The notes under the pieces were generated by a model. It saw only the letters and a program-made list of their open reading frames with translations, was not told the DNA's origin and did no database searches. Below, piece after piece: positions 23,802-49,873 of a stretch of DNA of 64,000 bases; position 1 is the stretch's first letter; each line of letters begins with the position of its first letter. This stretch comes from Clavaria fumosa (Eukaryota; Basidiomycota; Agaricomycetes; Agaricales; Clavariaceae): the NCBI GenBank assembly GCA_951802425.1, contig OX637794.1:3596001-3660000 (forward strand). Reading direction: 5' to 3'. A program made the position numbers and the translations under genes.

Positions 23802-24359
23802 CACCCCCTTCAGCACACCCACCCCCTATCCAAAAGGCCTAGCCGATTTTGACTGATGCCCTTTTTATGGGCCCAGCTGATCGTCGGCCGAGATATAGCT
23901 TTATAGGCTTGGCCGATCAACTTGATATACCAAAATCCTGCCAGGCATACAGGGATCCCATGGTAATGATGATACCCTTTCAAAAGGGCTGGCCGACACC
24001 CATTTTAGGAACCAGTGTAGAGGGTCTGAAGCACCCTATTCAAACATTTCTCTCACTTACATGACAAATTAGATCAAAAAGCTGGGGATAAAGCATATGC
24101 ACAAGATTAGGAAGCAAAGATCAGATGTGCTATTTGATAGATATGTAAATTACAAGGTCATCTGCATCATTTGAGACTCCTTATCATCTGAGACTCCTCC
24201 ATGACAACTTAACATAGTTGGGTGAGATGAAAACAAATATGCCTTCCAATAGGTCTTCAAAGGGTAGAAGCAAATGTACCAATCGAATATGCAATGGAGC
24301 CATTATAAACTAGAGTGAAATGTGGTTGTCAACTGAGTCAGGATATTCTTTGGAAAAGG

Positions 24360-24620
24360 ATGGGCCTTAATATCCTTTCTGAAGAGTATTCAAATCCACT
24401 TTGAATACGTGTTCTAAAGGAGAATGTATTGTTATTGTTCAAATATTCTTGCAATGTAGAAGTTGTGCATGTGAGTCTGTTATCACACCTTGTGATTATA
24501 TCATTCTGTGGCTGTGCCCGGAATCCCGGGTGTGACAGTCACACTGTGACCAACTCTGCATAAGAGTATTCAAATCCACTTTGAATATGTGTTCTAAAGA
24601 AGAGGAGAATGTATTAGAAT
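24360..24620 (-). promoter_or_regulatory. shared upstream module, outer copy in left arm
   Basis: Contains GCTGTGCCCGGAATCCCGGG followed by TGTGACAGTCACACTGTGAC, flanked by two copies of gagtattcaaatccactttga. It resembles the modules at 27262-27463, 45690-45890 and the mirror positions. No gene starts from this copy inside the element, so it may be a terminal protein-binding site or a relic promoter. Confidence 0.5.
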
Positions 24621-25090
24621 TGTTCAGGATGAGCCTTTGTACATAAAAATGATCCATTGTGGTCTAGAATTAAATTGAGGAAGTGATGCAAAGCAGTATA
24701 TAATCTGATATTCCTTATAAAGAGACAAACCATTATAAAAGGACCCACATATGTGGTTCAATGGGGCACACTCCACCTTCAACAATCTAGTGGGAATAAT
24801 GAAGGAGGATATTATTATCAGATATTGCTTATAAAGGTATGAATCTTCTGAACAGCATGATGCATCTAATAACAAGACTCAAATATGCTTTCTGATAGGC
24901 ACAGGTTCTTCAATGATGTAATGCAAAGCTGACTGATTCAGGAAGTGGATCATTATCTGAAATTCCTTAGAAAGGGCCAAACTATAGGCACCACAAAAGG
25001 ACAGATTGCAAAGAATTATTAGGACCTAGTGAGACATCATGCAGATTGATATGCACTACAAATGACTGTCACCAGTGTCAAGGATGATTT

Positions 25091-27198
25091 TCAGTGCTTC
25101 ACCCTTGGTCGCAGTACCCGCTTCTTGGCATCCATGGAAGCCCTCTCTCTAGCCCTGGTCCTATATTGCTTAGACCTCTCCTCCTCCTCTTCATCATGGT
25201 ATACCCTTTTCCTCTTGGGCAGGCTGGGCCCTGCCTCCTTGTGGATCTGAACTGCCATATGAGCAACAAGGCCATGAACATCTCTATGCACACCCACATC
25301 ATCCCACATCCCTTGTTCTCCTGTCCAAAATTCCATTATCTGTATTGTATTTATGCTGGACTGGAAAATTCTCACCTGGATGTTGCCTGTCATGGTCACC
25401 TTCTAACCCATTCCCCTCAATACCATCACCCCTTCACATATCCACCTGCTTGCTCAGACAGGATTCTTCTGCATCACTATCAGGGGGAACAGAAGCCTCA
25501 ACCCTATCATCATTATCCCCATCATAGATGCACCCCGAATCACTGTCTGACTCATCTGAGCCAATGTCTTCACTATGTGCATTTCAAATGTGCATTGATG
25601 ATGATGATGATGATGATAATGATGATATGAGAACACTCACTCAGTACTGATATGGACAGGCTGGACCTCTCGTTCTTTCCCCTTCTTGAGGGAGAGCCTC
25701 TTCACCTCTTTGTCAGATGACAATGATGGCTCTTGTTCAGGTTGCTGGTGATAGTTGACTAGATGCCTTGATGGCTTCCCTCTCTGGTGCTGTGGGAGAA
25801 CATATTGAAACCGTAATATTTTCTGGCCCAAAGTCTGTCGGTGATGCAGGAAATCACAGAGCCTTCTGACATCGACATATTGCATTTTTGAAGGCTCATG
25901 AATTTGCATTCCCTCTGGAAGGTATTCATGAGGAATAAACTTGTGTGGAGCATCAGCTATCAGTTGCCAAGGGACAGCAACCTTCTTGTTTTTTGTTGTA
26001 TTGCCTACATGTTGGAAGTAACTTGTCAGACTTGGACTATTGAGCAAGACAGACTCACGATAAGTGATAGTAAAAAATGACTGCAAAATTTCTTTGAGTT
26101 GTGCGAGTGGTAGGTTGAGTTCCAAAGGAAGAATGGGCCATCCCTCATGATCTGTTAGCAAATCCCATGGCACACTAATATCTCTTCCTTTCCTTGATAG
26201 CATCTCCTCTTCATCAACAAAAGGCTTCCTTTGTAACTCATCTGAAATCCTGTCAGTACTTCCCCAACCTTGGCTTCACATCATTTTCTCACCATTCCAT
26301 GTCTCAGCCAAATATTTATCCCACTCCTCCCACACCTCACAACCAACTTTGTGAAATTGTACCTTGAACCCACTAGTCACAGGTCCAGGGGTCTGAATCC
26401 TGGAGCATGTATACAGAGAATTAATCTGATGGACCAGTGGGCATGCAATTGAGACTCACTTTGCCTTCTTTATATTCCCTTTCTCATCTTGCCAGCCAGT
26501 CAACATAAATAATTCAACACCCATCTGCTCCTTTGCAAAACGGGCAAACTTCAGGGCCTCATGCATAAATTTGCGAGAAGCCAATCTCCAAGCAACATTT
26601 CAGCCATTCTACTGGTTGAGAAAGGTAAATTAAAATACTCACTCTCTCTGCACAGGAACTGGGACAGGCTCCCTATTCCATTTCTCTACCAACCCCACGT
26701 ATTTCTGATGCTCCTCTTGTGTTAGCTCTTGACAAATCTCAGTCCTAGCACGACGATATGAGCTGAGGAACTGGACTGATCCCCTCTCAGCATTTGACAA
26801 CTCCTGGGCCCTGGCATTGATGATCCCCTTCTTGCACTGCTCCACAACACGCTGGAGGGTCCACCTCTGTCGTTTGCTGAACTGAAGGCCTTGGTTGCCA
26901 TCATCTTCTGAACCAGAAGACTCCTCCCCTCCACTGACAGCCCTGCGGTTATTGTGGAGCCAATTGCGAATTTTCTATGAACAGACAAACATCAAATCAA
27001 CTCAGGAGACACATAAAATGCATAAGTTACGGTGCTAAGATCCTCTGGGACACATTTGTTGTCCTGCTCAGCTGAATCCTTGATTTTCGCTTTGATTTGC
27101 TTGACAATTTCGAGGCGGTCTTTTGAGTTTGCCTGTCTGTAGGCTACAAGACTTTCTGTGAGTATTTTGGTATACTCTGGGGTCATCCACCGTGTCAT
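25091..27198 (-). pseudogene. repeat-arm gene, left copy (unknown function)
   Basis: First ATG at 27198 (MTRWMTPEYTKILTES). After an intron (gt near 27033, ag near 26973) comes KIRNWLHNNRR, loosely like the recognition helix of homeodomains, then TLQRVVEQCKKGIINARAQE, further exons around 26600-26340, and a long exon 26203-25637 (ISVPWDLLTDHEGWPILPLE). The C-terminus is acidic then basic (PKRKRVYHDEEEEERSKQYR). In-frame TGA codons near 26278 and 25435 occur identically in the right copy: either shared inactivating changes or unrecognised introns. I recall similar hypothetical proteins in agaricomycetes but no function. The basic tail suggests a nuclear protein. Confidence 0.6.
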
Positions 27199-27261
27199 TT
27201 TCTTTGCTAGCCTAACTGATAAAGCAGTGGCGTTGTTGGGAAGCAAGAGGTGGTGTGTCAC

Positions 27262-27463
27262 GTGAGAAAATAACTTGGCTCATGTGAGTCACTTGTCACG
27301 CGTTGTGACTGTGACTTGCTGAGGCTGTGCCCGGGACCCCGGGTGTGACAGTTACACTGTGACTGTAACTCTCCATAACAATATGCAAAATGTCCTTTGA
27401 GTATGTGAGCCTTGTGTATTTTTTTAATGTACGAAATTCCACAGCAGTCACATCTCACAGCCA
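27262..27463 (-). promoter_or_regulatory. shared upstream module of left repeat-arm gene
   Basis: Lies 65-265 bp upstream of the ATG at 27198. Core GCTGTGCCCGGGACCCCGGG then TGTGACAGTTACACTGTGAC, a G+C palindrome followed by GTGAC inverted repeats. It forms the inner end of the repeat arm. Confidence 0.55.
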
Positions 27464-27592
27464 TTACGAACTGTTAGTTTCTTTCAAAAAAAGTAAATGC
27501 ATATATACATCAAGCAAGGGTTCCGATGACTCAGTCGGTGCTTCCTAGTACATGTGCTCTATTCTATGTCTAATCAAAATCAATGGCTAGGG

Positions 27593-30500
27593 TCAGGCAT
27601 TGAAACCGCGCCTCTGTCTCACACAGACCATCGATTCCATGTCTGAATTATCTGTTGTATTGATTAGAAAATCTGCTGCATCTAGATGAAAGTATATAAT
27701 GAAACACATACCATCATGCGGGGAGAGGGGCCTCTTAGAACGTATTGTCCCCAACTCAGAACGGTCATCTCCTGCATCACTGTCCTCTTGCTCTTCTTCA
27801 GAGACCTGTTCATAAATTGGATCGTCCAGCAAATCTCCCAGCTCCGTCCAAACCTGAGTATTGTCGCGGGGAAATATGTGGAAGTCAGGGCCATCCCAGG
27901 AGAACCAATTACCAGCACTGGTATCGTCATGGAGCAACTTCTGGAAGGCATCCAGAAGGTCTTGCCAGTCTTTCCGAAGGTGCTCAAGCACTGCTGCAAT
28001 CACCTGCTGTGCAGTGATTGTGAGTGGTGCCTTTTTCTCCCACCTTTTCATGTAAGAACAAAGTGCCGCGCCAAACTGGATGAGCAATTTGTAGAAGAGA
28101 TATGATGGGTTCACCCCTTGACCACCAATCTCAAGAATGTATCATTTGATGAACCAGCTCTGGAAGATGCGGTATCGCCACATCGCAACGTTTTGCTCTT
28201 CAAGTATTTCAGGCGGTGGTTTCCTCCCATGTGACTTGAGGCCAAGGGCTATCACAAATTCAAGCATGTTCCCCACCATGATAATATCGAGGAGTCCATG
28301 TCTTGTTGTGACATCGGGGATGTGGGCAAGTGCCTCACCAAATGCTAAAACAATTATCAGATGACATACATAATGATGGAGAGATTCTACCATATTTGGA
28401 TTTCCCCGTGACGTAGTGCTCAACCCAGACTGCCATCATCTTGCACAAGTATGTGGTCGTTGATTGGTGCTCTTGATTGGTGATTATCGGGTTGAGCACA
28501 AACGTATGCAGGGCTGAAGCACAGCTGCGAGCTATCGTGGATGCGGAATAAAAGTGCCGGCCATAAACAATCGTCGGCTCTGGGCCAAGCACAAAATGGA
28601 GTGTGCCAGGACACATGAAACTGTAGGATTGTCAGTAAATATTGCACGTGATAATTATTGCAACTCACAAAATATCTCCTGTCTTCAGGTGTATAGCCTC
28701 TGCACATAAAAATTCTTTTCCGGTGCTACAATCACCCCAACTGAGGGGGAAGGCATGCGTCGAAAAGATATTGCCGCGATAGTCGTAGTCTTCTGCGTCT
28801 GTACGGCAGCCCACCACTTTGACCCTGACATGACAGTCGAAACAACTGCAAGGCCAACATCATCAATATGGGGCATGCTGATGGTCCCACCAGTGGCTGC
28901 AATGCCCCAGATCAGGTCGTCTTTGTCAGGTTGGTTTGTGAAGCCATCCATCTTTTGGGTTTGGTGGCGTGCCCACTCATGAGTTGCAAAAGCGCTGATT
29001 TAGTTATTGTTTCAGTTGTCATGTGTCAGAGCAACAAATGGGACATGCCTGAATCGAGGTGGTGGAGGGAGGCTGAGGCTTCCCATTGGGAAGTCAAGGC
29101 CATTCAAAATCCGTTGTTTTGTAATATCACGTGTTGACTCCAGCAAATCGTGGAGTGTCCCAGTGTGGAGCAGATTTGCATCAGAGTGCTTTCGCATCTC
29201 TGCAACTATAGAAGCTGACTTAGATGAATCAACTTGAAAAATATTTTAGACTCACCTTGGAACACACATTCCTGATGTAGAGGAGCCAATGTCGATAATC
29301 CCTCCTCATCAAAGTCGAGGGTTGAAATTGGCGTATTCGTAATAAGAATATGTCGACGATGGAACACCTCTTGAATTTCCAGACTAGTCATCTTCATGAA
29401 CTCAGTCCAGGTTGTGACGAGTATCGCAGACGCATCTGGATGGAATGTTCGCGACCTGGCAGTTGGAAGACGATGCTTAGGGACCTGATTGACATATTCC
29501 TCTTCGACCATTTCTATTATGTCCATTAGGACAGGATACTCGCGGAATGCCTGCTTTATTTTGAGAGATATCCATGAAAAAAAGTGTTAAACGTACTGAA
29601 TCTGAAGTCGTGAAATGCTCATAGACGGTTGGCTCGGTATCAGGATTTGCATCATACATTTTGACTTTGATGGAGTGATTCTCCATCTGCATTGTGTGAA
29701 TTAAAATATTACGCAGTAGTTGAGATTTTGCTTACCTTGGGGAGGGGTAAAGAGGAGAGCTCCTCCACTTTCTCTACATGCTAAATAAAACAATTCAATC
29801 AGCATTTGTTGGGGTGTCAATATAAGTCATACCTTGACCGTCAGGTCAATGATACTCCGAATTGGCTTCAAGGCAGCCTTTCTACCCTGGTGGATGGGTC
29901 CAGGTGGCTTTGTCTTGCCTTGGCCCACATGTGTATCCTGTGTCGCCTTTCCTTTCCCTTTCCTCATCACAGCTTCCTCATTGGGGATCAACTTGTCATC
30001 CTTATTCTCCTGGTCTGATTCATGCCGGAGTCTCTTTGCTGCCCTTCGCATTGGACGATGAACCTTGTGTTTCAGTGGCTTCTCCAATGCACCTTCAGCT
30101 TCTTCAGCGTCTTGAGTGTCTGAGAGCTCCTGCTGGTCGTATTCGAGCATGGGGAAAATTGGTGTTTGCTCAATCAGACCTGCTTCATGAGCAGAAGTGA
30201 CGCCCTGGGGATCTGCTTCCAGAGCAGGAATGATGTCTTCGACATGCTCTGGGGGACCAGCTTCAGGAGCAATGATGGGCTCTGCTTCTTCTTCGATGGA
30301 ACATGGTTCGGGAGCTGTGATGACACGTTGGACTTGCCCTTTCTTTGCAGTCAGTTTCATTCAGGGACGAAAAGATCAAAATAACATACGGGATGGAGAA
30401 TACCAATCCATCTGAATTTCTGGCCCCTTGAACTGCACCTGAAGGTCTTGAAACTCTGTAAGGAAGCCATTCAGGGCCGCTGATGAGTCGCCAGTGATGC

Positions 30501-31799
30501 TTGTTTGCATCAGAGCTCTCCACAGTGCTTTCTCCGTCAATCCCAAAAACGCAGGCTTTTCGTTACCCAAGTACATTGCAGTCTATATTGCCTGTTTCGT
30601 AAACACAATCTGACATAAAAATGAGGCACTCACCGATACCAAGAAACTTCGTCGCAGTTGCGACTGGTCAAATGCCCTTGTTGTCAGGGCAAAAAGGGGA
30701 CTGACAGAGAGGCAGTAGTGGAAGAGTCCGCGCACATGCTTGAAGAGCATCGGGCCAAGACATGGATCTGTGAGCCTTGAGACAAGGCTGGAAGACAGAG
30801 GAAGACCCTCGCTTTCTAATTGTCTGTGTGAAAAAACTTAGTTGGAAATTTGGATAAGGCAAACTATGTTGCTCTCACTCATTTAAAATATTGACCCAGT
30901 CCTGGGTCGACTCAGCAAAACCTGTGGCATTATTCTGAGAGATTGTTAGTTATAATTCCCAACAAAAAATTTGCTGGACACAAACCAAGCCAAACCAAGT
31001 GATGGCAAATGCCATCATCTCAAAGTTTAGAAGTACGGACTTGACCTGGATGTCTCGCATTCGTTCCAGGCCCCCACCAAGGAACTTTACAGCTTTGATC
31101 AGTTGTTCCTGCTTTGGCGAAGGGTGTGCAGGAAGGGAGGTGCCAAAATATGCCGCAGAATTCGTCAATGGATCCATGGCTTGAAAGCTTTGAGACCCCT
31201 GTGCTTTTTCAATGGGCTTGAGCCAATCCTTAATGGTACCAATATACTATGAAAGATAAGAAACTTGGAATAAGGGAAAGAAATTTAATGCACATCGCTA
31301 AACTTCTTGGGCATCTTAGGCAATTCAGATCGAGGCATTAGCTGGGATGGAGAAGCCTCAACAATCGAAAATGCCAAGCGGTCCAAAAGGGCATGACGAA
31401 AAACGAAATGAGCAGCACTCATGAGAGCCGATGTGTTGTGTTTCTCCCATTTCTCTCTGCTAACCAAGTCACTGTATGATGCCCGGAAGTATTTGTTGAC
31501 TGCTCTTTCCTTCTTCAGTGCCGTGCTTCCAGGTCCAAAACGATCCAAAGACTGAGCGATCGACTAGACGATTAGCTTTGATAAGCAAATAATCCTAAGT
31601 TTATAAGTTTGAATTGAACCTTGCAGAGGGAAACTTGCTCCTCTCCTAAGTTGTGGTGCTGTCCCAGCCAAGTAGCAATGTTGCTTTCCAGAAGTCCAGG
31701 CTTCATGATGATGTCGGTCAACCAAGGATAGTTTTGGAAAACAGCACTCGTGCGGACTGTTTGGGGATCGAAGATGGTGAGCAATGCTGAAGTCGACAT
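27593..31799 (-). CDS. JmjC-like 2OG-Fe(II) dioxygenase family protein
   Basis: A multi-exon gene from ATG 31799 (MSTSALLTIFDPQTVRTSAV) to stop 27593, with helical N-terminal exons and a Lys/Arg/Glu-rich middle (30360-29827) with nuclear-localisation-like tracts (MRRAAKRLRH). The cupin core at 28950-28550 reads ATGGTISMPHIDDVGLAVV, then GSKWWAAV and CPGTLHFVLGPEPTIVYGRH. This gives an HxD pair (H-I-D), a Lys after Gly-Ser, and a distal His, as in JmjC enzymes. Likely a nuclear demethylase-like or hydroxylase-like protein; the substrate is unknown. An in-frame TGA (28142-28144 on plus, read on minus) before YILEIGGQG would remove about the last 180 residues; it fits a CGA to TGA change. Exon borders are tentative. 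Confidence 0.75.
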
Positions 31800-31909
31800 T
31801 TTGCTTGTCAAGGAAGAGGATTTGTTCATCGAAGTAGACATTGAAGTGTGGTTTGGGAGTAAGTTCAAGTATGTAACAAGGATTCAAGTACTAAAAAAGG
31901 ATGAAATTG

Positions 31910-31975
31910 ACAGTGGCAGTGCCTGGGATCCCCACTGTTACATGTCACACCTGTTACACTGTCATGGGCCTCTGC
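31910..31975 (-). promoter_or_regulatory. degenerate copy of shared upstream module, 5' of JmjC-like gene
   Basis: Contains cagtgcctgggatccccac and gttacatgtcacacctgtta, a weaker version of the CCCGGG/GTGACAG module. It sits 111-176 bp upstream of the ATG at 31799. Confidence 0.35.
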
Positions 31976-32149
31976 TCTTGTGCTTCTGCTTGAAATCTGA
32001 ATGTAGCACAATCCGGGTGGTCTCCCTCTAATGACATGGAAGTGTATGAGCACAGAAGGCTCCGAAATGAAAGGAAAGGTAACATGAGAAAAATAATGTC
32101 ATTTGTAGTACAATTTTCAGCGATATCAGCACTAGGCATCCCCGCTGGA

Positions 32150-33160: not shown

Positions 33161-34150
33161 AGAAGGGGGATGGGATAACAACGCACCATTGCTGACATGA
33201 GGTTGGGAGTGGGCAGTAAGGCGGGGTTGGTGTAGGCAGAGTACAGGGTGCACCAGATGGCATATGCAGGGCCCAGGCAGTGTGGATGGAACGCGGGGTG
33301 CGCCAGGTGTTGTGGATGGAGTGCAGGGTGTGCTAAGCGGTGTGGGCAGGGTGCAGGGTGCACTAAGCGGCAGAAGCAGGGCACTGGGTGCACTGGAATT
33401 AGCAGAGCAGAGAGCGGGTGGTCGAGAAGCGGGTCAGACGCGGCAGAGCGAGGAGCGAGCGGGTGAGGCATGGCAGGATTGAGCAGGGCAGTGAGAAGGC
33501 AACACGTGATCGTGTAATTTATTGAGATCATGTGACATATCAATATAAACAAACAGAGCCAAATGTTGAATCGCCTTAGATATCAAACAAACAAACAAAA
33601 GATGGTCGCACCATCTTTTGTCTTCCGCTCCATCACCTCGCTCTTGTCTGCCTCATCACTCTCGTCCGCCTCGTCACTCTCGTCCGCCTCATTGCTCTTG
33701 TCCGCCTCGTCGCTCTTGTCCGCCTTGTTTCCCCTGTCTACCCGCCCACCGAGCCTCCTGCTACGCCGCCTGGGACATCTATTTTATGGTTCGTGATGGA
33801 CAGGGACAGCATTCTCTGTGCGGCAACTGCAGTGCTGCACAGGGAATGCTGCCCTTGTCTGTCATCAGGTGTCTCTTAGCTCGACACCTGCAGAGGTGCG
33901 TGTATTCCAATGCGACTCATTATTGGTCGATGTGGTGCTCGTTGATGTGGTTTTTCAGAATTTTATGTGAAGAGGGTGGCCGTATGGGCCTTTTTGTTTG
34001 GTGGTGGCTTAGATGCGAGCCGGCCCCAACCAACCCTCATTCATACCCACCTGGGGTGGCCAATTGGGCCAAGGATGTGAGTGTCGTCTATTATGCAGAC
34101 GACCTCCCCCAACCCCTCATCATTGTAAGTGATTTTGCCTTGCTTGTGCT
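33161..34150. other. non-coding stretch with short repeats and hairpins
   Basis: Holds ggtgtgcagggtgc-type repeats at 33240-33380, a perfect 10-bp stem with 3-base loop at 33597-33619 (aaaagatggt/accatctttt), a ctcgtccgcctcgtcact tandem array at about 33636-33725, and an imperfect hairpin with arms of about 33 bases at 33797-33870. No convincing gene. Confidence 0.55.
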
Positions 34151-34375
34151 CATACCCTGGGGTTGCCGTATGGGCTCCGAGATGGACTGCTAGCCGCCAT
34201 GTGGTTAGCGTCCTCTCACCCCACTCATACCTTGGGGTTGCCGTATGGGCTCCGGGATGGACTGCTAGCCGCCATGTGGTTAGCGTCCTCTCACCCCACT
34301 CATACCTTGGGGTTGCCGTATGGGCTCCGGGATGGACAGCTAGCTGCCATGTGGTTAGCGTCCTCCCACCCCAGT
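34151..34375. repeat. 75-bp tandem repeat, three copies
   Basis: Units begin at 34151, 34226 and 34301 (cataccYtggggttgccgta), exact period 75. Copies differ by a few bases. The period is a multiple of three, so an open frame runs through, but no start, splice or domain context supports a protein. Confidence 0.9.
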
Positions 34376-34692
34376 TTCTTACAGATTCCCTCTCTTATGG
34401 ACAACAATCAGTAAGTCCGTTTTTTTTATCTACTCGAGACTGGGGGGAACTCTTGCTTCAGCGAAGTGGGGCACTGCTTAGATTGCAGTGCCCTCTTTGC
34501 AATGAAGCATATATTGCGATGTGAATGGCTAGTCAGAGGTGGATTTGGCCACCCATCCTCTGACGTAAATGCCTGACATGGTTTTCTTTTTGATACGTTT
34601 TACACTAGACTTGTAAATTATTTGTACTTGACGCTTTTTTTGAAATGAAGATGATATAAAGAAATCATACTGTAACTTATGCAGTTTTGCAG

Positions 34693-34710
34693 CCCTAACC
34701 CTAACCCTAA
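34693..34710 (+). repeat. interstitial telomere-type repeat (CCCTAA)x3
   Basis: Three exact CCCTAA units, the fungal telomere motif TTAGGG on the other strand, inside the transposon. Too short to be a chromosome end. Confidence 0.8.
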
Positions 34711-35537
34711 GCAGGGCTAGTGGCTTCGAAGCCATGCACCCTCTGCTGTCATCACACATCCTGTGAAGGGAGTGTTTTTCATCAGTTTACGCCATTTGTA
34801 TGTGGCGGCAATGACAGTGGTGGCGGCTGCGGCTGCAGCATGCGGCAGCAATGGCCCAAGCCCCCAACAGTGGTCACAGACCAATGGCGGGGACTGGGGC
34901 CATTGGTGGCAGCAGGGACAGGGCAGAAGCAGAGCGTCAGGGTGGGGAAAGGGAGCAGCGGTGGCAGCAGGGCAGGGCGGGACAGCATGGCAGTGGCAGG
35001 CATGCACAAGGTCTTGTCTCCGCAAGTATCCGCTACAGGGCCATAGCACGAATGCCAAGAGGGCACGACGGCACCAGTAGGTAAATACAAGGAGAGGAGA
35101 GCAGGTAGACACAAAGGGACAACTATAAACAAGTGAATGAGAATTATTATAGACACAAGTAAACGAGAGAACGTTTGAGCATTAGCCCTTCTCAACACTC
35201 ATCATGCTCTCTTGATGCTTTGTCCCAGCCTTGGATATATTCTTGTTGTGCCTTTGTAACTACACATACAGTAGTCTTTCCTGGTCTGAACATGTCTTGT
35301 TCCCCCTTTGTCCAATCATTGTACTTGCCTACCCTGGTAGTTATAGAAACTTCCTTCTTGTCTGAACTTATTGCTTCACACCTTGTTCTCCCCTCTGTCT
35401 AATCGTTGTGTGGTACCACTGTCGACTGAACCTCCCCTATTCAAGAGATGTAGTCTTGTATTGTTGTAGTCAAGGTGATCTGGAAAACATTATATATGCA
35501 TGACCCTCACTCTCTCTTAGTGCTTATCCCCCTCACA
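34711..35537. other. upstream region of H3-tail-mimic gene
   Basis: Contains the inverted copy of the ggcccaagcccccaacagtgg module (34850-34905) and AT-richer sequence near the gene with tatatatgcatg at about 35490 as a possible TATA element. No other gene seen. Confidence 0.4.
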
Positions 35538-37115
35538 ATGGCTCGAAACAAACAAACAGCACAGAGAAGTACCGGCGGTCGCGCTCTCCGCATTGTCCCA
35601 GGGTCAGCTGTATCCACAAGAACGACAGCTACTTCTACAGCGCTGGTTAGACCAGAATTTGCTAGTGAGGGTGAAAATGTGAGTATTCGCCTTTGCTCTG
35701 AGCACTGGTACAAAACAATAAACTTTTTCCACAGTTCTGCTACATGTGCCTTAATGGTGGTTTTCTTTTTGTCTGTGATTACTGTGCTCGGGCGCTATGC
35801 ACAAAATGCCTCACTGTCCCGACTTCGATCGACACCGAACACCTCAAGTTCATGTGTCTCACCTGCCATGCTCGGTCTTTCAAAGGACCCACCCTCAGCC
35901 CATATTATGTGAGCATTGATTTACTTATTCTGTTTCGTTCTCTTATCTTTGCATTGTAGGGGTTCTATTTGACAAAGGGCCTCGACATCATCGACGGGAA
36001 GCCCGACACGGCAAGATTGCGACCAGCGTTTGCACAACCTCTCAAGGTAGTAGGCAATTTTCAAATGACTGCAAATTCTCGTGTCAGCAACAAGGGACTA
36101 CTTGTCTTGCACTTTCTCCTCAAAGGAATGGATCATGCTGGAACGCCGGCAAGACTTCTCGCCGACTATATGCGGTCGTATCTTGGAGATGAGGCGTTGC
36201 AGTATGAAGAGGTTGTGTTCAATCTTGCCAATGACATCCTTATCAATTTGCACGCAGAGTACATGAAGAGCTTGGTGCATAAGATTCAGTATGAGCTTTC
36301 TGTTTCATATCATATTGTACTAACCATTTTCACAGAAATAAACATCCCCGTGTCGTAATTTTTATTACGAATCATTCTCATGATGACACTGGCGACCTCT
36401 TTCTTTCACCTGGGTTATGCACCCAGGTCAAACCCGTGAGTTTGTTTACAATGCATCTGCCTCCAGCTAATTTGAAGCCTTAGTTTCTCGACGTCCTCCT
36501 CCCACCTGCCCACTTGACATTCCTCAAAGGGGCAGAGGTCACATTGTGGATGATGTCCTGTGGAACATTAGTCAAGAACTTCCGTAGTTATTCAGAGCTA
36601 GCAGAGGCAACCAAGCGGTAAGACAATAACTAGCACTCTCAATTTGCTAATTAATCAAAATTTCCAGCCTTTTGATTTCGGATGTCATCGCATTCACAGC
36701 CGCTGAGCTGCAACCTTGCCTTACGGCAGGGTTTGTAGTTGGCTATGCCCAGCAAGTTCTGGTGGAGGGATTCCCTCTGGAGGACTGTCTCCGGAGGCTC
36801 CTACCTGCGACATCAGCAATTTGTTGCCACACCGACATCGTCCATCTCCAGGCAAGAGAGGGACAAATACGTGGTGCTCGTTATATGTGGGTTCACCCTG
36901 AGCTTCGCCCTTGGGGAAATCAGCTCCCAGTGCAGTGCAAGGCTTGTGGCTGCATCCGCTCCTGGGTCTCATCTACTGGTAATGCTGGGGCGAGAATATT
37001 TGCTTGTCGAAATCCGCAGTGCACCAACAAACTTATCTTCAATGCACCTGAGGAGAAAGTTTGGCTGGGAGGCGAAATTTTTGGAGGGCGCTGGCTAATT
37101 ATAAATCAACAGTAG
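35538..37115 (+). CDS. histone H3-tail-mimic protein with PHD-like zinc finger
   Basis: Six exons (35538-35678, 35735-35908, 35960-36288, 36336-36435, 36484-36617, 36668-37115), all GT-AG and phase-consistent, give 441 residues with no internal stop. After Met the protein reads ARNKQTAQRSTGGRALRI; histone H3 is ARTKQTARKSTGGKAPRK, so 12 of 17 positions match. K4 is kept, K9 and K14 become Arg, K18 becomes Ile. Residues 48-105 form a C8 finger (CYMC, CDYC, CTKC, CLTC) with PHD-like spacing. The middle (about 106-290) is an unrecognised domain including RVVIFITNHSHDD. A C-terminal CxxC...CxxxxC ribbon (CKACGCIRSW, CRNPQCTNK) ends it. It could act as bait for H3K4 writers or readers. I recall similar hypothetical proteins in agaricomycetes. 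Confidence 0.85.
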
Positions 37116-38200: not shown

Positions 38201-39688
38201 CTCATCCAATGGCCAAAAGGAAGCATCAAGAGACTGACTTATCTGGCTCAAACAAGAGGACCAATTATGCTCCTTGTGATGCGTATGTATCGTCTAACTG
38301 AGCTGAGTTGATGTCTAATGCCCACCCAAGGCCATCTACTTTGAAAGGCACCATGTGGAGCCTCTTACGCACTACGATACGCAAGCACGTAACTCATAAA
38401 ATGCAAAAGCCACTCAAGACAAGGCAAGTCATCAATTTTTAATCCTGTTAAGCCAGCTAAAATTGAAGGAAGGTTGAAAATTTGGGGCGAACTTGAGGAA
38501 TTGAGAGTTGCCATGGATTCCAGCAACGAGAGTAATGCTGACGACCAACCTGTGACTCAAGAAGAACTACAACGTGTAGTTCTAACTGTGGCCTATGCCC
38601 TCTTCAACCCAAGTGCGTTAGCTTAAATGACTTGCAACAATCAGCTGAACACTTTGACCATTCAGTTCAAACGGAATGGGACATAGATCGGTTTGCAGAC
38701 AGTGTGAAACATATCAATCTCATAGCCAAACGCAGCAATAATTTCGATGCAGCCTTGGTGAAATTCAGCAAGTATTTCAAGCAGCCTCAAGACCTCGGTG
38801 TTCAAGAGGAACCCTGCACAATAATTGATAAGCACGGTCGTATCTTGCTGTGGGCTCTGCCTGGAATTCTTTCTAGTGCTAGAGTGGTGAGATAAGGCAA
38901 TCAAATTTGAACCATATTTTCTAACCAATTTACAGGAGCAGTACAACAGAGGGTGTGAGCACATTAGCAAGCATCTGGACAGAGACTTGCCAAGTAATGC
39001 TGGGCGTACTACGGGATTTGTCGAACCTGAAGGCGGAGGTCGTTTTGGTGCCGGAATCAAGTCCTTCTCTCCTGGCTGGTTTATGCAAGGCCAGCAACAG
39101 GTAATGCTGTCACATAACTACCTTGTTTTACTGTCTCAATGTCAACAGCTCAGTGATAAACTGCATGCTTCGACCAGCTTGCAGACTGCATATGGTTCCT
39201 CCTTCATTCGAGGAATCGCACATGCAGAGAAGCTGTGCAATTCAATTATGGCCTTGGTCGCACCAGAACAATATGACTTTGGGAGCTCAGCCATTGACCA
39301 AGTGCAATCTGGGGTGGCAATGGCAAAAACATACAAGAATGTGCAGCTTTGGCCCTCAATCTTTACGGCAATGGAAGTCATCATGAACAGGAAGACTCCT
39401 GCACATCGCGACAAGGGAGGCTGCCTGGCTCACTACGATCTTTTGGTTAGTGCTGGAACTCACAAGCAGGCATACATGACACTCCAGGAACTTGGTGGTC
39501 AATTTGCCTACAATCCTGGAACTGTCCTTGTATTTGCGGGTAAAGTTTTTCTGCATGAAGTGATGGATTGGGAGGGTGGCGAACGATTGTGCATTGCTCA
39601 TTTCATGAAAGATTCTGTTCATGACCGTCTACAGATACCACGACCAACTTACCCAACTCAAAATACGTACATGCAATTGTTGACCTAG
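38201..39688 (+). CDS. TET/JBP-family 2OG-Fe(II) dioxygenase
   Basis: Probable ATG at 38201 (MAKRKHQETDLSGSNKR). Exons include a stretch near 38430-38610 (KIEGRLKIWGELEELRVAMD), 38643-38887 (EWDIDRFADSVKHIN), about 38937-39101 and 39150-39688; borders of the first exons are tentative. The catalytic exon shows HRDKGG (HxD iron ligands, about 39400), LLVSAGTHKQAYMTLQELGG, YNPGTVLVFAGKVFLHEV with the distal His, and GERLCIAHFMKDSVHDRL with the Arg expected to bind 2-oxoglutarate. These are hallmarks of fungal TET/JBP enzymes, which oxidise 5-methylcytosine in DNA. No broken residue is seen. Such genes are known neighbours of KDZ transposases; it converges on the transposase 111 bp away. Confidence 0.85.
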
Positions 39689-39799
39689 GTACATTTATAT
39701 AGAAACTGGTCACTTCATCACTGTTGCTGAACTCCAGGAAAAGAGCTTCTGTCTGGGTGAAATTCCAGTGCTTTGTATCCCCACAATTGATGTGGCTAG

Positions 39800-42700: not shown

Positions 42701-43400
42701 GCTCCCATTGATCCTTCTCCCTGTACCCTTCCTCTTTGAATTCTGGACACGGTGAGCCTTGATGCCCTAAGTGAATCGCCAGTCCAACATGTAGGAGATC
42801 AGATGGCAGGAAACAAACTCCATTCCAAACGTCAATGGAATGGAATGGGATATTGATGTGAGATTTGGCGCAGCATGAGGAGCAAGTTGCAGGCCAATAG
42901 AAACAATCACGGCATCGAAACTTGAAGTTGTTCTGATTGCAGACCTGACAAATTTTGGAAGGGGGTGGAGCTTCTAATTCCAAGATTTCCCTCAGGTAAG
43001 CTGTTCTTAAAGGAAGCCAATCCTCAAGGAATTCATTCTGAGTCTGAATGTGTACATTTTCAGATACTTCAGCATACAGAGAACAACTTGGAGTCCTCAC
43101 CTTTCCTTGCTTTTTCTTATGTGAAATCCTTTGGGCATCAGAATCCAGTATGCACTCAGGGTCACCATCTGCATTAAATGTAAAGGGCAGAGTCTGTTTG
43201 GCCTCGCTATGGGGTGTTTGGGGGAGTAGGGAATCATTGGAGCAGGTCCCAGACCAAAGCTTGCTATGTAGAACGTTGTATGGTTGAGCAGGTTGTTTGT
43301 AGACATTTCGAGACTTCAAAAAGGATTTCCGCAGTCGTTTATTGTAAATTGAAACAAATTCAACCTCCTGGGCATGTTCTTTTCGTTTAGTGATTGGCAT
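39800..43400 (-). CDS. KDZ-superfamily transposase with CxC2 cysteine cluster
   Basis: First ATG at 43400 (MPITKRKEHAQEVEFVS). The N-terminal exon has the CxC2-type cluster CQVCNQNNFKFRCRDC...CSSCCAKSH. Later exons give FCPACPQPGINLPNNW, the first catalytic Asp in LVVDGNFSAEHLKMRRAEKD, GIGACACSRHGCFVPHSVVD, the second Asp in YDICCQWIRNFDKRV, and HGAGQQDGEILETLWSNLN with the third acidic residue. This is a complete DDE-like set for KDZ (Kyakuja-Dileera-Zisupton) transposases. The C-terminus is helical (NWLRAKARYDRWEEEM). No internal stop was found in the exons. It should cut and rejoin the element's ends in the nucleus. Four 47-bp repeats lie directly upstream of the ATG. Confidence 0.9.
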
Positions 43401-43418
43401 GGCGGAGGTTGCAGTGGA

Positions 43419-43608
43419 CAAAGTGTTGTGTCATGTGATTGGGCTGACTGAAAAACTCACATATGCAAAGTGTTGTGTCATGTGATTGGGCTGACTGAAA
43501 AACTCACATATGCAAAGTGTTGTGTCATGTGATTGGGCTGACTGAAAAACTCACATATGCAAAGTGTTGTGTCATGTGATTGGGCTGACTGAAAAACTCA
43601 CATATGCA
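43419..43608. repeat. 47-bp tandem repeat, four copies, 5' of transposase
   Basis: Units start at 43419, 43466, 43513 and 43560 (caaagtgttgtgtcatgtga...), exact period 47 and nearly identical. They occupy 19-208 bp upstream of the transposase ATG, so they lie in its promoter or 5' leader. No spacer pattern. Confidence 0.95.
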
Positions 43609-43705
43609 ACTTCTATGTTGCAAAGTGTTAGAGTAATACAAATACAAGATACAATAAAATTCCAGTGGCAGTAGAATTACAAGAAGAAAGGCCTGTAAAT
43701 GGCAA

Positions 43706-45457
43706 TCAGACTATCCTTTGTTTTTCATGCTCAAACCAACTCTTCTCTGCAACGGTGAGGATCTCTTCTTGTAGCCTTGTCCGAAGCCCACCAATCCTCC
43801 AGCACTTCCATGCTTGTTCAATGTCTTGTTGAGACATCAAGGGGTTCTAAGGGATGTTGAAATGACATTAGAAGAAGAAAAGAAATATCCAATTACCAGC
43901 ACCACATCCATTAATCTGTCACCTTCATGCAACCACAGCCTTGCAAAATGGATCGCATATATGCCACAATCATCTCCGTTTTTCTGTTTTGGAACCTAAG
44001 CAAGAACATATGAAAATATATGAAGCACCCTTTTTTGCACAATTTGCCACAAACCTTTGGTTGGATAACCTTTGGGTCCTTGGTGTACTTTAGGCCCTGT
44101 TGATGCCCAAGCTCTCGGAAGAGGTCTTGGATTGCCTTTGCGTCTTTGGAATGCACCCTGTCACGAAAAAAGCTGTCAAGTATGACAATGGTACTGTAAA
44201 GATGTTAGTACCAAAAATATTGCAAGAAATGGTACACTCACCATCCCCAGTTACCATCTGGCTGATCGACTAGAAAGCAATGGCCTGGGTTTGCCACAAT
44301 TATGGTAAACCAATGCTTCCTGTAATAGGTATAGCATCCCCATAAATTCCAACAAGATATCAGCCACGTACAGTTCCTCACTGAACCCAGGAATAATCCA
44401 GTATCTGCATTTGTGTGCAGATTCTGGAAGCCATGCGATAATATCTCTGGTGCCATCCTTTCTTCTAATAAATGATCAGCTTTCACCCACATCATTAAGG
44501 GGTGAAATTACCTCAGTACTGGAAGGAAATATGTATTTGCAAGCCATATTCCAGATGCCCCTGTTTCCAATGCTTTGTATGTCTCTCTGTCCACCTTGAG
44601 CATTGTTAACAATTGAACATTGGTTGACGTACTGAAGTGCAAAGTTGACAATATCTCCCCCTATCCATTGACCAGCCTTGAGTTGGTCAAGTTCAATATC
44701 TTTCAATTGAACTGGACCTAGAAGCATATGTGTGCTCCCAACACTACAATGAGAAAAATATGTCAAATATATTGATTACATGAGGTTATTGATCTACCCT
44801 GATGTTGTCCCACCAGATACCCATGCAGCTTCGGATTCCTCAGGTCTTATGATATTGCCAATCATTAATGTTGAAATTTAGCTTTCAAAACAAGCCACAT
44901 ACCTAAGATATTGCCATGTGTCTCCCGGAAAGTTAGGCTTGACAGATTGAACAAATGCTTCGTATGTTTGTTGACTCCAGAGACTTGATTCTTGGTCAAA
45001 AAGGAGAAATAGTTTTGGAAACAGTACCCGTCCTAGATCCTCTCAGACAGACATGGAGCAAGCTTTCAAAAGTACATACCTTTAGTCTTGCCCCAAAACT
45101 GTGCTAATTGGGGTTTCAAAGGTCGAACCAGATTGACATGGAGGACCATGACCACATGACGCCCTTTCTTATCAGGGTGACTCATCTAATGTCATTAGTA
45201 ACGCCTATCCTGCAGTTTGGGGAGACTCACTTTACAAGCTGATGAATCCCTTTCTAAGCGAACTTGTACTTGGGGAAACCCCATGCCTGTCAAAGTCATT
45301 GCAGCCCTTTCACAACTCAGTGAGGAGATTGAATGGACAAGAACAAAAGTACTTACATGGCACCCTGGACTTGAAACGAGGCAACCAAGGATTTGGGGTT
45401 GCTGGTGTTTCCACCCACACGGACAGCAGCACAAGGAAGGATGATTGGGGCAGACAT
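43706..45457 (-). CDS. Ulp1-like (C48) cysteine peptidase
   Basis: Probable ATG at 45457 (MSAPIILPCAAVRVGGNTSN); seven or more small exons joined at GT-AG sites. Typical Ulp1 features in order: QLKAGQWIGGDIVNFALQYV (substrate-binding strand), YYRKHWFTIIVANP with the catalytic His, FLVDQPDG with the catalytic Asp, then after an intron (about 44057-43999) VPKQKNGDDCGIYAIHFARL with the Gln and nucleophile Cys. The triad is intact. The family removes SUMO or related modifiers from nuclear proteins. It lies head-to-tail upstream of the transposase on the same strand, about 300 bp away. Possible roles are protecting the transposase or silencing factors from sumoylation; this is inferred. Confidence 0.8.
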
Positions 45458-45689
45458 GGTGGATATCGACAAAAGTGTATGCGACAGTCACACTATGTGA
45501 CATCTGTTATCACAGCATCAGCACAGCCACACTAACTTTATGAGTGGGTAATCTTTTGGAAAATACAGCGTTGTTCACAACCCCTGTGGACCAGCATGAC
45601 TATCTGACATTGTCTGGTACCACAATTGTGAGCCATAGTTGTATCACAAATTTATGCAAAGATATTCAAGCAAAGGTTCTGCTGACGTT

Positions 45690-45890
45690 AGTCAGCTTTT
45701 CCTAGTTTCTGCAATAATAGCAATACATTCTCCTCTTACCCAGAACACACATATTCAAAGAGCATTTGGATATTCTGATGCCAAGCTATGGTCACAGTGT
45801 GAGTCACACCCGTAATCCTGGGCATAGCCACAACAAGTCACAGTCACATCTCCCAACACACAATTCACATGAGCAAAGCTATGTTATTTT
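45690..45890 (+). promoter_or_regulatory. shared upstream module near Ulp1-like gene
   Basis: Reads caatacattctcctcttacc, acatattcaaagagc, ggtcacagtgtgagtcacac and ccgtaatcctgggcatagcc: the same order of blocks as in the arm modules, more diverged. It lies 230-430 bp upstream of the peptidase ATG, but in the orientation opposite to that relation in the arm genes (core motif is symmetric). Confidence 0.45.
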
Positions 45891-46197
45891 GCATCAAAAT
45901 GTGCCATTGCTTCACTTCAGAAGCAATATCATATATATATAATGCAGAGAAGGCTTCGGATCGAGAGGACTGGAGTTCATGCGAGAGACGTAGTGTATTC
46001 AGTAGTGTAATAAAGATCACAAGGATAGCACATACCTGGAGTTCACGCGAGAGACGTGAAGCTCCAGATACGGCGGTACGAAAAATCCTCAGGGCCCTGA
46101 GGCCACTGCGCTGGCAAGCACGTAACCAATAGGAGTTTAAACTAAACGTACTAGTCCTCTTTCAGATAGACCATTAGCCGAACCTTCGTCATCACTC
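45891..46197. other. spacer between Ulp1-like region and right arm
   Basis: Contains a repeated ggagttcaYgcgagagacgt (about 45972 and 46041). No gene or RNA recognised. Confidence 0.4.
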
Positions 46198-46399
46198 TGG
46201 CTGTAAGATGTGACTGCTGTGGAATTTCGTACATTAAAAAAATACACAAGGCTCACATATTCAAAGGACATTTTGCATATTGTTATGGAGAGTTACGGTC
46301 ACAGTGTAACTGTCACACCCGGGGTCCCGGGCACAGCCTCAGCAAGTCACAGTCACAACGCGTGACAAGTGACTCACATGAGCCAAGTTATTTTCTCAC
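46198..46399 (+). promoter_or_regulatory. shared upstream module of right repeat-arm gene
   Basis: Mirror of 27262-27463, 64-265 bp upstream of the ATG at 46463. Contains cacccggggtcccgggcac flanked by GTCAC repeats. Confidence 0.55.
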
Positions 46400-46462
46400 G
46401 TGACACACCACCTCTTGCTTCCCAACAACGCCACTGCTTTATCAGTTAGGCTAGCAAAGAAA

Positions 46463-48570
46463 ATGACACGGTGGATGACCCCAGAGTATACCAAAATACT
46501 CACAGAAAGTCTTGTAGCCTACAGACAGGCAAACTCAAAAGACCGCCTCGAAATTGTCAAGCAAATCAAAGCGAAAATCAAGGATTCAGCTGAGCAGGAC
46601 AACAAATGTGTCCCAGAGGATCTTAGCACCGTAACTTATGCATTTTATGTGTCTCCTGAGTTGATTTGATGTTTGTCTGTTCATAGAAAATTCGCAATTG
46701 GCTCCACAATAACCGCAGGGCTGTCAGTGGAGGGGAGGAGTCTTCTGGTTCAGAAGATGATGGCAACCAAGGCCTTCAGTTCAGCAAACGACAGAGGTGG
46801 ACCCTCCAGCGTGTTGTGGAGCAGTGCAAGAAGGGGATCATCAATGCCAGGGCCCAGGAGTTGTCAAATGCTGAGAGGGGATCAGTCCAGTTCCTCAGCT
46901 CATATCGTCGTGCTAGGACTGAGATTTGTCAAGAGCTAACACAAGAGGAGCATCAGAAATACATGGGGTTGGTAGAGAAATGGAATAGGGAGCCTGTCCC
47001 AGTTCCTGTGCAGAGAGAGTGAGTATTTTAATTTACCTTTCTCAACCAGTAGAATGGCTGAAATGTTGCTTGGAGATTGGCTTCTCGCAAATTTATGCAT
47101 GAGGCCCTGAAGTTTGCCCGTTTTGCAAAGGAGCAGATGGGTGTTGAATTATTTATGTTGACTGGCTGGCAAGATGAGAAAGGGAATATAAAGAAGGCAA
47201 AGTGAGTCTCAATTGCATGCCCACTGGTCCATCAGATTAATTCTCTGTATACATGCTCCAGGATTCAGACCCCTGGACCTGTGACTAGTGGGTTCAAGGT
47301 ACAATTTCACAAAGTTGGTTGTGAGGTGTGGGAGGAGTGGGATAAATATTTGGCTGAGACATGGAATGGTGAGAAAATGATGTGAAGCCAAGGTTGGGGA
47401 AGTACTGACAGGATTTCAGATGAGTTACAAAGGAAGCCTTTTGTTGATGAAGAGGAGATGCTATCAAGGAAAGGAAGAGATATTAGTGTGCCATGGGATT
47501 TGCTAACAGATCATGAGGGATGGCCCATTCTTCCTTTGGAACTCAACCTACCACTCGCACAACTCAAAGAAATTTTGCAGTCATTTTTTACTATCACTTA
47601 TCGTGAGTCTGTCTTGCTCAATAGTCCAAGTCTGACAAGTTACTTCCAACATGTAGGCAATACAACAAAAAACAAGAAGGTTGCTGTCCCTTGGCAACTG
47701 ATAGCTGATGCTCCACACAAGTTTATTCCTCATGAATACCTTCCAGAGGGAATGCAAATTCATGAGCCTTCAAAAATGCAATATGTCGATGTCAGAAGGC
47801 TCTGTGATTTCCTGCATCACCGACAGACTTTGGGCCAGAAAATATTACGGTTTCAATATGTTCTCCCACAGCACCAGAGAGGGAAGCCATCAAGGCATCT
47901 AGTCAACTATCACCAGCAACCTGAACAAGAGCCATCATTGTCATCTGACAAAGAGGTGAAGAGGCTCTCCCTCAAGAAGGGGAAAGAACGAGAGGTCCAG
48001 CCTGTCCATATCAGTACTGAGTGAGTGTTCTCATATCATCATTATCATCATCATCATCATCATCAATGCACATTTGAAATGCACATAGTGAAGACATTGG
48101 CTCAGATGAGTCAGACAGTGATTCGGGGTGCATCTATGATGGGGATAATGATGATAGGGTTGAGGCTTCTGTTCCCCCTGATAGTGATGCAGAAGAATCC
48201 TGTCTGAGCAAGCAGGTGGATATGTGAAGGGGTGATGGTATTGAGGGGAATGGGTTAGAAGGTGACCATGACAGGCAACATCCAGGTGAGAATTTTCCAG
48301 TCCAGCATAAATACAATACAGATAATGGAATTTTGGACAGGAGAACAAGGGATGTGGGATGATGTGGGTGTGCATAGAGATGTTCATGGCCTTGTTGCTC
48401 ATATGGCAGTTCAGATCCACAAGGAGGCAGGGCCCAGCCTGCCCAAGAGGAAAAGGGTATACCATGATGAAGAGGAGGAGGAGAGGTCTAAGCAATATAG
48501 GACCAGGGCTAGAGAGAGGGCTTCCATGGATGCCAAGAAGCGGGTACTGCGACCAAGGGTGAAGCACTGA
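46463..48570 (+). pseudogene. repeat-arm gene, right copy (unknown function)
   Basis: Same locus as 25091-27198 in mirror orientation, with MTRWMTPEYTKIL start, KIRNWLHNNRR after the first intron, the long exon 47458-48024 and the basic C-terminus ending at 48570. The one protein difference noticed is Met for Val in QKYMGLVEKWN. It carries the same in-frame TGA codons (about 47383 and 48226). If those are spliced out or read in another exon phase, the element has two expressed copies; otherwise both are dead in the same way. Confidence 0.6.
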
Positions 48571-49040
48571 AAATCATCCTTGACACTGGTGACAGTCATT
48601 TGTAGTGCATATCAATCTGCATGATGTCTCACTAGGTCCTAATAATTCTTTGCAATCTGTCCTTTTGTGGTGCCTATAGTTTGGCCCTTTCTAAGGAATT
48701 TCAGATAATGATCCACTTCCTGAATCAGTCAGCTTTGCATTACATCATTGAAGAACCTGTGCCTATCAGAAAGCATATTTGAGTCTTGTTATTAGATGCA
48801 TCATGCTGTTCAGAAGATTCATACCTTTATAAGCAATATCTGATAATAATATCCTCCTTCATTATTCCCACTAGATTGTTGAAGGTGGAGTGTGCCCCAT
48901 TGAACCACATATGTGGGTCCTTTTATAATGGTTTGTCTCTTTATAAGGAATATCAGATTATATACTGCTTTGCATCACTTCCTCAATTTAATTCTAGACC
49001 ACAATGGATCATTTTTATGTACAAAGGCTCATCCTGAACA

Positions 49041-49301
49041 ATTCTAATACATTCTCCTCTTCTTTAGAACACATATTCAAAGTGGATTTGAATACTCTTA
49101 TGCAGAGTTGGTCACAGTGTGACTGTCACACCCGGGATTCCGGGCACAGCCACAGAATGATATAATCACAAGGTGTGATAACAGACTCACATGCACAACT
49201 TCTACATTGCAAGAATATTTGAACAATAACAATACATTCTCCTTTAGAACACGTATTCAAAGTGGATTTGAATACTCTTCAGAAAGGATATTAAGGCCCA
49301 T
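49041..49301 (+). promoter_or_regulatory. shared upstream module, outer copy in right arm
   Basis: Mirror of 24360-24620, with gtcacacccgggattccggg and paired acatattcaaagtggattt blocks. Confidence 0.5.
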
Positions 49302-49859
49302 CCTTTTCCAAAGAATATCCTGACTCAGTTGACAACCACATTTCACTCTAGTTTATAATGGCTCCATTGCATATTCGATTGGTACATTTGCTTCTACCCT
49401 TTGAAGACCTATTGGAAGGCATATTTGTTTTCATCTCACCCAACTATGTTAAGTTGTCATGGAGGAGTCTCAGATGATAAGGAGTCTCAAATGATGCAGA
49501 TGACCTTGTAATTTACATATCTATCAAATAGCACATCTGATCTTTGCTTCCTAATCTTGTGCATATGCTTTATCCCCAGCTTTTTGATCTAATTTGTCAT
49601 GTAAGTGAGAGAAATGTTTGAATAGGGTGCTTCAGACCCTCTACACTGGTTCCTAAAATGGGTGTCGGCCAGCCCTTTTGAAAGGGTATCATCATTACCA
49701 TGGGATCCCTGTATGCCTGGCAGGATTTTGGTATATCAAGTTGATCGGCCAAGCCTATAAAGCTATATCTCGGCCGACGATCGGCTGGGCCCATAAAAAG
49801 GGCATCAGTCAAAATCGGCTAGGCCTTTTGGATAGGGGGTGGGTGTGCTGAAGGGGGTG

Positions 49860-49873
49860 TGGTTGCGGGATTC
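49860..49873 (+). pseudogene. copia C sliver between KDZ element and gypsy A, with TSDs
   Basis: Fourteen bases: TGGTTGC (duplication from the KDZ element) then GGGATTC, whose last five, GATTC, are the duplication from gypsy A. It is the only copia sequence left between the two insertions and ties both histories together. Confidence 0.9.

What the first reader, a model, noticed from the sequence alone, without database searches (positions are those of the whole stretch)
23802..49859. A 26-kb KDZ transposon carrying its own chromatin and DNA-methylation toolkit
One bounded element combines a KDZ transposase, TET/JBP dioxygenase, JmjC-like protein, histone H3-tail mimic with a PHD-like finger, Ulp1-like peptidase and two arm genes. 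KDZ plus TET/JBP linkage is established for basidiomycetes; the full set inside one target duplication is, to my knowledge, not described. The simplest reading is a mobile element that edits methylation, histone marks and SUMO to escape silencing or time its movement.
Basis: partly seen in the sequence, partly recalled or inferred. Interest (0 to 1): 0.96.

Follow-up and report, generated by a model that had tools for sequence, protein, structure and literature searches.

The report
Giant transposon carrying histone-tail mimic
A 26-kilobase jumping gene, repeated many times in what is likely a mushroom genome, carries in one package its transposase, a DNA-demethylase-type gene, predicted histone- and SUMO-acting genes and a copy of the histone H3 tail, a set that would likely help it resist the host's silencing.

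Summary
Window 23802-49859 is one insertion: 3,662-bp inverted arms (5 mismatches), CA...TG ends, 7-bp duplication TGGTTGC. Of 13 testable end pairs in this genome, 9 have an exact 7-bp duplication and 2 one mismatch. KDZ and TET/JBP pass Pfam cut-offs; Ulp1 passes in a diverged relative; JmjC and PHD score below cut-off. An H3 N-terminal tail mimic recurs in nine distinct forms, mostly near KDZ genes, keeping R2, Q5, G12 and R17 in 9 of 9 and K4 in 7 of 9, but K9 in 3 of 9. It is joined to a PHD-like finger whose best PDB matches include H3K4me0 readers. Against simple escape: copies differ mainly by CpG decay, so they are probably methylated, and the window's JmjC-like gene is frameshifted. 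KDZ-TET linkage is known; the rest was not found in the papers searched.

The parts
23795..23801 (.). left target-site duplication TGGTTGC
49860..49866 (.). right target-site duplication TGGTTGC
23802..27463 (+). left inverted arm, 3,662 bp
46198..49859 (-). right inverted arm, 3,662 bp, 5 mismatches to the left arm
25091..27198 (-). left arm gene, predicted 577 aa, no assigned family
46463..48570 (+). right arm gene, mirror copy, predicted 577 aa
27593..31841 (-). JmjC-like gene, out of frame in the window copy
   Evidence: domain evidence on relatives
35538..37115 (+). H3-tail/PHD-like gene, predicted 441 aa
35538..35591 (+). histone H3 N-terminal tail mimic MARNKQTAQRSTGGRALR
35735..35908 (+). 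PHD-like zinc finger exon (Cys where PHD fingers usually have His)
38209..39688 (+). TET/JBP dioxygenase gene, predicted 414 aa
39800..43400 (-). KDZ transposase gene with CxC2 cysteine cluster, predicted 1,057 aa
43706..45457 (-). Ulp1-like cysteine protease gene, predicted about 422 aa, with DDCGIYAIHF motif
   Evidence: PF02902 and SENP matches on the relative

Best explanation
This is a 26-kb KDZ (Kyakuja-type) DNA transposon with gene-bearing 3.66-kb inverted arms and a 7-bp target duplication, and its TET/JBP, JmjC-like, Ulp1-like and H3-tail/PHD-like proteins are predicted to act together to undo or mask the host's DNA-methyl, histone and SUMO silencing marks. Shown: the ends, the duplications, short relatives with the same ends, the gene set, its recurrence between inverted arms in three families, pN well below pS between two of them, and heavy CpG decay of the copies. 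Inferred: the KDZ protein cuts and joins the ends; TET oxidises 5-methylcytosine on the element; the JmjC-like protein acts on a histone or other nuclear protein; the Ulp1-like protease removes SUMO. The H3-tail protein would present an A1-R2-T3-K4 end, mostly without K9 and always without K14, either to its own PHD-like finger (self-assembly) or to host H3K4me0 readers and LSD1-type enzymes as a decoy. Because copies still look methylated over time, the likely benefit is short windows of expression and movement, not permanent escape.
For: Element and mobility. Gene set in one insertion. Recurrence: of 28 neighbouring arm-gene pairs under 50 kb apart, 26 face (-,+), 2 (+,-), 0 the same way; 21 of the 26 enclose KDZ, TET, JmjC-like, H3-tail and Ulp1-like entries. 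Selection between two families 43-64% identical: pN 0.22-0.39 against pS 0.66-0.86 for six gene pairs. H3 tails: 37 of 62 within 6 kb of a KDZ exon, random mean 2.2, maximum 7 in 500 draws. PHD-like finger: best PDB matches PHF21A/BHC80, SP140, CHD4, AIRE among 47 sequences at E up to 10; PMC3471955 (passages) names the BHC80, AIRE, CHD4 and TRIM24 PHDs as H3K4me0 readers. C5-methyltransferase-like matches at two places of the genome. CpG transitions 47 times and 21 times the rate at other C/G sites.
Against: No expression, methylation or binding data. JmjC and PHD assignments are below Pfam cut-offs, and a two-sequence JmjC-like profile found no JmjC chain in the PDB. The window's JmjC-like gene is frameshifted and the C11 copy has a stop in it. 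CpG decay suggests that the copies are methylated despite TET. At 6 kb the tails are not enriched near JmjC-like (2 of 62, random 1.1) or arm genes (1 of 62, random 1.5). The finger and the arm exon could not be modelled well (pLDDT 46 and 52). Family D has no complete set in 3 pairs.
Confidence: 0.6

Rival explanations
1. The extra genes are transposition machinery, not counter-silencing: the H3-tail/PHD-like protein tethers the transposase complex to chromatin and helps to choose targets, and the Ulp1-like and JmjC-like proteins tune its stability.
For: The tail's steadiest partner is the transposase: 37 of 62 tails lie within 6 kb of KDZ, and the cluster type tail plus KDZ with no other marker occurs 21 times among 206 clusters.
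Against: CcTET, a relative of this TET, oxidises 5mC (PMC12730594, section 24 part 1), and methylation pressure is visible in the copies.
Confidence: 0.25
2. The genes are host-serving or passive cargo picked up by a transposon, with no role in its own spread.
For: Many single-marker clusters exist, and several copies carry stops or frameshifts.
Against: The same set is kept between inverted arms in three families with pN well below pS in all six gene pairs compared; passive cargo should decay or differ.
Confidence: 0.1
3. The H3-like start is a nuclear-import or nucleic-acid-binding basic stretch that resembles H3 by chance or by descent, not a reader-binding mimic.
For: The tails are basic and short; the PDB match to H3 is weak (best E 0.014).
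Against: Identity is concentrated at the extreme N-terminus and at R2, K4, Q5, G12 and R17 across nine forms, while K14 and R8 are never kept; the next-best stretch of the window has 6 identities against 12.
Confidence: 0.15

Closest known systems
TET+ Kyakuja transposons of Agaricomycotina (Kyakuja-1_LB, Kyakuja-2_LB; Kojima 2025, PMC12730594; outline, sections 10, 18, 34, part 1 of section 24 and find passages seen)
   Same: KDZ transposase with a TET/JBP gene, 7-bp TSD, CA..TG termini
   Different: Those two are stated to have no TIRs; here 3.66-kb arms each hold a gene, and JmjC-like, Ulp1-like and H3-tail/PHD-like genes are present. The words Ulp1, JmjC and PHD do not occur in that paper's main text.
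TET/JBP-KDZ association in fungi (Iyer et al. 2014, not readable here; known only through Kojima's text)
   Same: TET/JBP genes beside KDZ transposase genes
   Different: Whether further linked genes were described there could not be checked.
Vandal anti-silencing proteins and SET-bearing HarbingerS transposons (as cited in PMC12730594, passages)
   Same: Transposons that carry regulators of epigenetic marks
   Different: No histone-tail mimic and no such multi-gene set is mentioned in those passages.
Histone H3 mimics such as influenza NS1 and SNAG-type LSD1 ligands (recalled, no call)
   Same: Short H3-like ends on non-histone proteins
   Different: Not transposon-borne and not joined to a PHD-like finger (recalled).

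Membership tests
KDZ superfamily | KDZ transposase domain with CxC cysteine cluster | tested here: met
   PF18758 2.1e-30, PF18803 5.2e-27
Kyakuja | 7-bp TSD and CA..TG termini | tested here: met
   9 of 13 pairs exact, 2 with one mismatch, 2 fail; CACCCCC...GGGGGTG ends
Kyakuja | absence of TIRs as stated for the two described Laccaria families | tested here: not met
   3,662-bp inverted arms; this separates it from those two families, and it is not known to define all Kyakuja
Kyakuja | transposase groups with Kyakuja in a tree | not tested
   no reference transposases were at hand
TET/JBP dioxygenases | 2OG-Fe dioxygenase domain of the TET/JBP type | tested here: met
   PF12851 1.2e-18; CcTet 1e-21
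Ulp1/SENP proteases (C48) | C48 domain with DCG motif | tested here: met
   PF02902 7.9e-5 above cut-off on the C8 relative; DDCGIYAIHF in the window; SENP matches from E 0.0046
JmjC hydroxylases | JmjC domain with HxD...H | tested here: inconclusive
   PF02373 0.012 over positions 5-108 of 114, below cut-off; PHIDD and PGTLHFV conserved; no JmjC chain in the PDB search
PHD fingers that read H3K4me0 | PHD zinc pattern and similarity to known readers | tested here: inconclusive
   PF00628 0.0033, below cut-off; PHF21A 1.7e-4; His replaced by Cys; model unusable
Starship or Polinton giant elements | tyrosine-recombinase captain, or DNA polymerase B and integrase | not tested
   no such search was made; considered only because of size

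The most novel reading that the evidence does not exclude
A transposon carries a self-reading histone decoy: a protein with an H3 tail and an H3K4me0-type PHD finger in one chain, its tail conserved across many KDZ families. It is the hub of a six-gene cassette that strips DNA methyl groups, histone marks and SUMO from the element, and the cassette travels between gene-bearing arms that are kept alike by copying one arm from the other.
Probability: 0.3. Interest if true: 0.92.

Novelty: new variant of a known kind. Interest (0 to 1): 0.8.

Why it matters
Why KDZ elements carry TET genes is open. Here TET is one part of a recurrent set that includes a histone H3 tail mimic, which can be tested as a 20-residue peptide. 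It would be a rare case of histone mimicry by a transposon, and the tails' pattern (R2, Q5, G12, R17 kept; K9 mostly and K14 wholly lost) makes sharp predictions about which readers they bind. The CpG-decay signature gives a measure of the methylation pressure that these genes would oppose.

Tried and rejected
Empty site: an 800-base query of the two joined flanks gave 41 matches (40 of 223 candidates scored), dominated by an LTR that begins next to the insertion point; none spans the junction. A 551-base check of one LTR copy matched only the LTR edge. The copia-type frame reads AQDSDDRRLVAGF across the joined site, which is suggestive only.

Relatives elsewhere: the H3-tail/PHD-like protein alone and a three-sequence alignment without the tail gave nothing at E 1e-3, 7,994 best candidates scored each time. 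TET gave 21 proteins of 336 candidates, one named from Suillus, so fungi are at least partly covered, but no genomic context is given.

Structures: arm exon (pLDDT 52) and finger (pLDDT 46) were too poor, so no fold search was run.

Papers (listings unless stated): Kyakuja-Dileera-Zisupton 6 papers; a five-term TET/SUMO search 0; Kyakuja 12; histone mimic + transposon 28, 15 listed, none about this by title or abstract start; KDZ + transposon + JmjC 0; ARTKQTA + transposon + fungi 1, about Suv39h1; Zisupton + Ulp1 0; Ulp1/transposon/SUMO set 9, none about KDZ by title; PHD/BHC80/mimic set 52, 10 listed. Iyer 2014 could not be read.

Rows dropped before counts: by hand I merged pieces of one copy, so searches used 146 of 150 KDZ rows, 66 of 77 TET, 68 of 85 JmjC-like, 99 and 98 of 150 arm rows, and 62 of 63 tail rows; one search used 45 Ulp1-like entries from the 46 and 18 rows. 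The KDZ and arm searches scored 150 of 164 and 150 of 183 candidates. Families A-D are my own labels from identity to the window, tail form and span.
Full report
OBSERVATION. The window lies at C1:3596001-3660000 of an unnamed 48.76-Mb, 17-contig genome. The element runs 23802-49859 with 3,662-bp arms (5 mismatches) and a 7-bp TSD. Of 40 ends examined, 39 keep the terminus. Of 14 pairs, 13 were testable: 9 exact 7-bp TSDs, 2 with one mismatch, one (C2:570602/601808) with three, and one (C1:3227889/3237919) with none and inverted flanks. Of three short pairs (8.8-10 kb) two have exact TSDs; the one read in full (C10:64666-73486) is a near-palindrome that shares about 770 terminal bases with the window element and no match to its coding genes, so the ends alone appear enough for movement in trans (inference).

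GENES. No annotation exists, so exons were predicted by a script from codon usage, splice signals and conservation with a diverged relative at C8:2314-2343 kb. KDZ and TET are firm. Ulp1-like is firm through the relative. JmjC-like and PHD-like rest on sub-threshold profile hits with conserved motifs. The arm gene has no assigned family; a weak GTF2I-repeat hit appears in both families. The window's JmjC-like gene lacks 10 bases relative to the C11 copy and is out of frame; C11's has a stop elsewhere. The H3-tail gene is fully covered with no stop and no gap in 8 of 20 loci examined, the window's own included (one of the eight has lost a finger cysteine). The TET exon is full-length and open in 10 of 77 rows.

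RECURRENCE. Own-genome searches gave large families. Arm genes closer than 50 kb form 28 neighbouring pairs: 26 face (-,+), 2 (+,-), none the same way. Of the 26, 21 enclose tail, JmjC-like, KDZ, TET and Ulp1-like entries; by family, A 12 of 13, B 6 of 7, C 3 of 3, D 0 of 3. The C8 relative (family C) has the genes in a different order. Protein identity between it and the window is 51.5% (arm), 43.9% (H3-tail/PHD-like), 51.5% (TET), 64.2% (KDZ), 42.6% (Ulp1-like) and 50.1% (JmjC-like), with pN 0.22-0.39 and pS 0.66-0.86; synonymous change is saturated for four of the six. In the C8 relative the H3 tail sits on a paralogue 27% identical to the window gene, beside one 44% identical in which no tail was found.

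HISTONE-TAIL MIMIC. Window: MARNKQTAQRSTGGRALR. A PDB search with its exon gave 122 sequences up to E 10, best 0.014; the 60 shown are H3 or H3-related chains and peptides, one of them Cse4. A search with the C8 relative's tail found 40 places; 12 were fetched and all 12 read as H3-like starts, one with a later stop. Those 12 hold seven distinct forms; with the window's and C8's, nine. Over the nine: A1 8, R2 9, T3 7, K4 7, Q5 9, T6 4, A7 6, R8 0, K9 3, S10 6, T11 7, G12 9, G13 3, K14 0, A15 4, P16 0, R17 9. Decayed copies of the window form vary further, one with a changed R2. Of 62 tails, 37 are within 6 kb of a KDZ exon (random mean 2.2) and 52 within 30 kb (10.0); within 30 kb, 34 have TET (4.9), 29 JmjC-like (4.5) and 32 arm genes (6.5); at 6 kb JmjC-like (2) and arm genes (1) are not enriched (random places on contigs C1-C12). 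So the tail goes with KDZ elements at large, beyond the giant ones.

PHD-LIKE FINGER. Best PDB matches: PHF21A/BHC80 1.7e-4, SP140, CHD4, AIRE, TRIM66, and lower ATRX, TRIM24, TRIM33, among 47 sequences that also include unrelated zinc fingers. PMC3471955 and PMC10124903 (passages only) describe PHDs of this type, BHC80 included, as binding the extreme N-terminus of H3 with unmodified K4. A ligand-like tail and a reader-like finger in one protein suggest self-assembly or decoy; this is untested.

ARMS EVOLVE TOGETHER. Among 11 arms from six elements (2,438 ungapped columns), 12 sites are private to both arms of one element, none is shared only by same-side arms of different elements, 24 are singletons and 11 fit neither. 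In 4 of 5 elements with both arms the two are mutual nearest neighbours; C10 is the exception, and only part of its right arm was aligned. Copying between arms is the likely cause, for example gene conversion or repair from the other arm.

METHYLATION PRESSURE. Window against C11: 138 of 180 differences are CpG transitions, 10.3% of CpG sites against 0.22% of other C/G sites. Over 35 comparisons of fetched loci with the window: 792 of 1,280 differences, 13.9% against 0.65% (these overlap in copies and regions and include C11, so they are not independent). CpG observed/expected is 0.43 in the element, 0.80 and 0.61 in the flanks, and 0.67 in the C8 relative. C5-methyltransferase-like matches lie at two places of the genome. 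So the elements are most likely methylated in the germ line: a pressure that TET would oppose, and a sign that it does not win permanently.

NOVELTY. KDZ-TET elements with 7-bp TSDs and CA..TG ends are known (PMC12730594). Not found in the searches named under Tried and rejected: gene-bearing long arms, the JmjC-like and Ulp1-like genes in KDZ elements, and the H3-tail/PHD-like protein. Iyer 2014 was not readable and most subscription papers are not held, so absence from print is not shown.

Noticed in passing
window 23802-49859 against other copies: Divergence between copies is dominated by CpG transitions, 21-47 times the rate at other C/G sites.
   Followed up: yes
G000:C10:64666-73486 (L089, L110, L088): An 8.8-kb near-palindromic element with the same ends and an exact 7-bp TSD; inside it matches window 33784-34711 but not the coding genes.
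   Followed up: partly
G000 positions such as C1:165981, C4:116535, C5:114618, C12:123021, C14:75167: JmjC-like relatives, about 37% identical to the window, with equal scores near the ends of many contigs, suggesting a subtelomeric repeat with a JmjC-like gene.
   Followed up: no
window 24386-24407 and 24566-24587; also 49253-49274 in the right arm: Palindromes of the type GTATTCAAA-n-TTTGAATA in the arms, possible protein-binding sites.
   Followed up: no
window 22805-23842 and 49867-50266: The element interrupts a copia-type reverse transcriptase frame (PF07727 2.8e-57) beside an LTR with many copies.
   Followed up: partly
C8:2323597-2325967 and C8:2329279-2330748 (L072, L073): The C8 relative has two PHD-like paralogues, and an H3 tail was found on only one.
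   Followed up: partly
window 56548-58964: Two open frames of 346 and 454 codons with no Pfam hit at E 1e-3.
   Followed up: no
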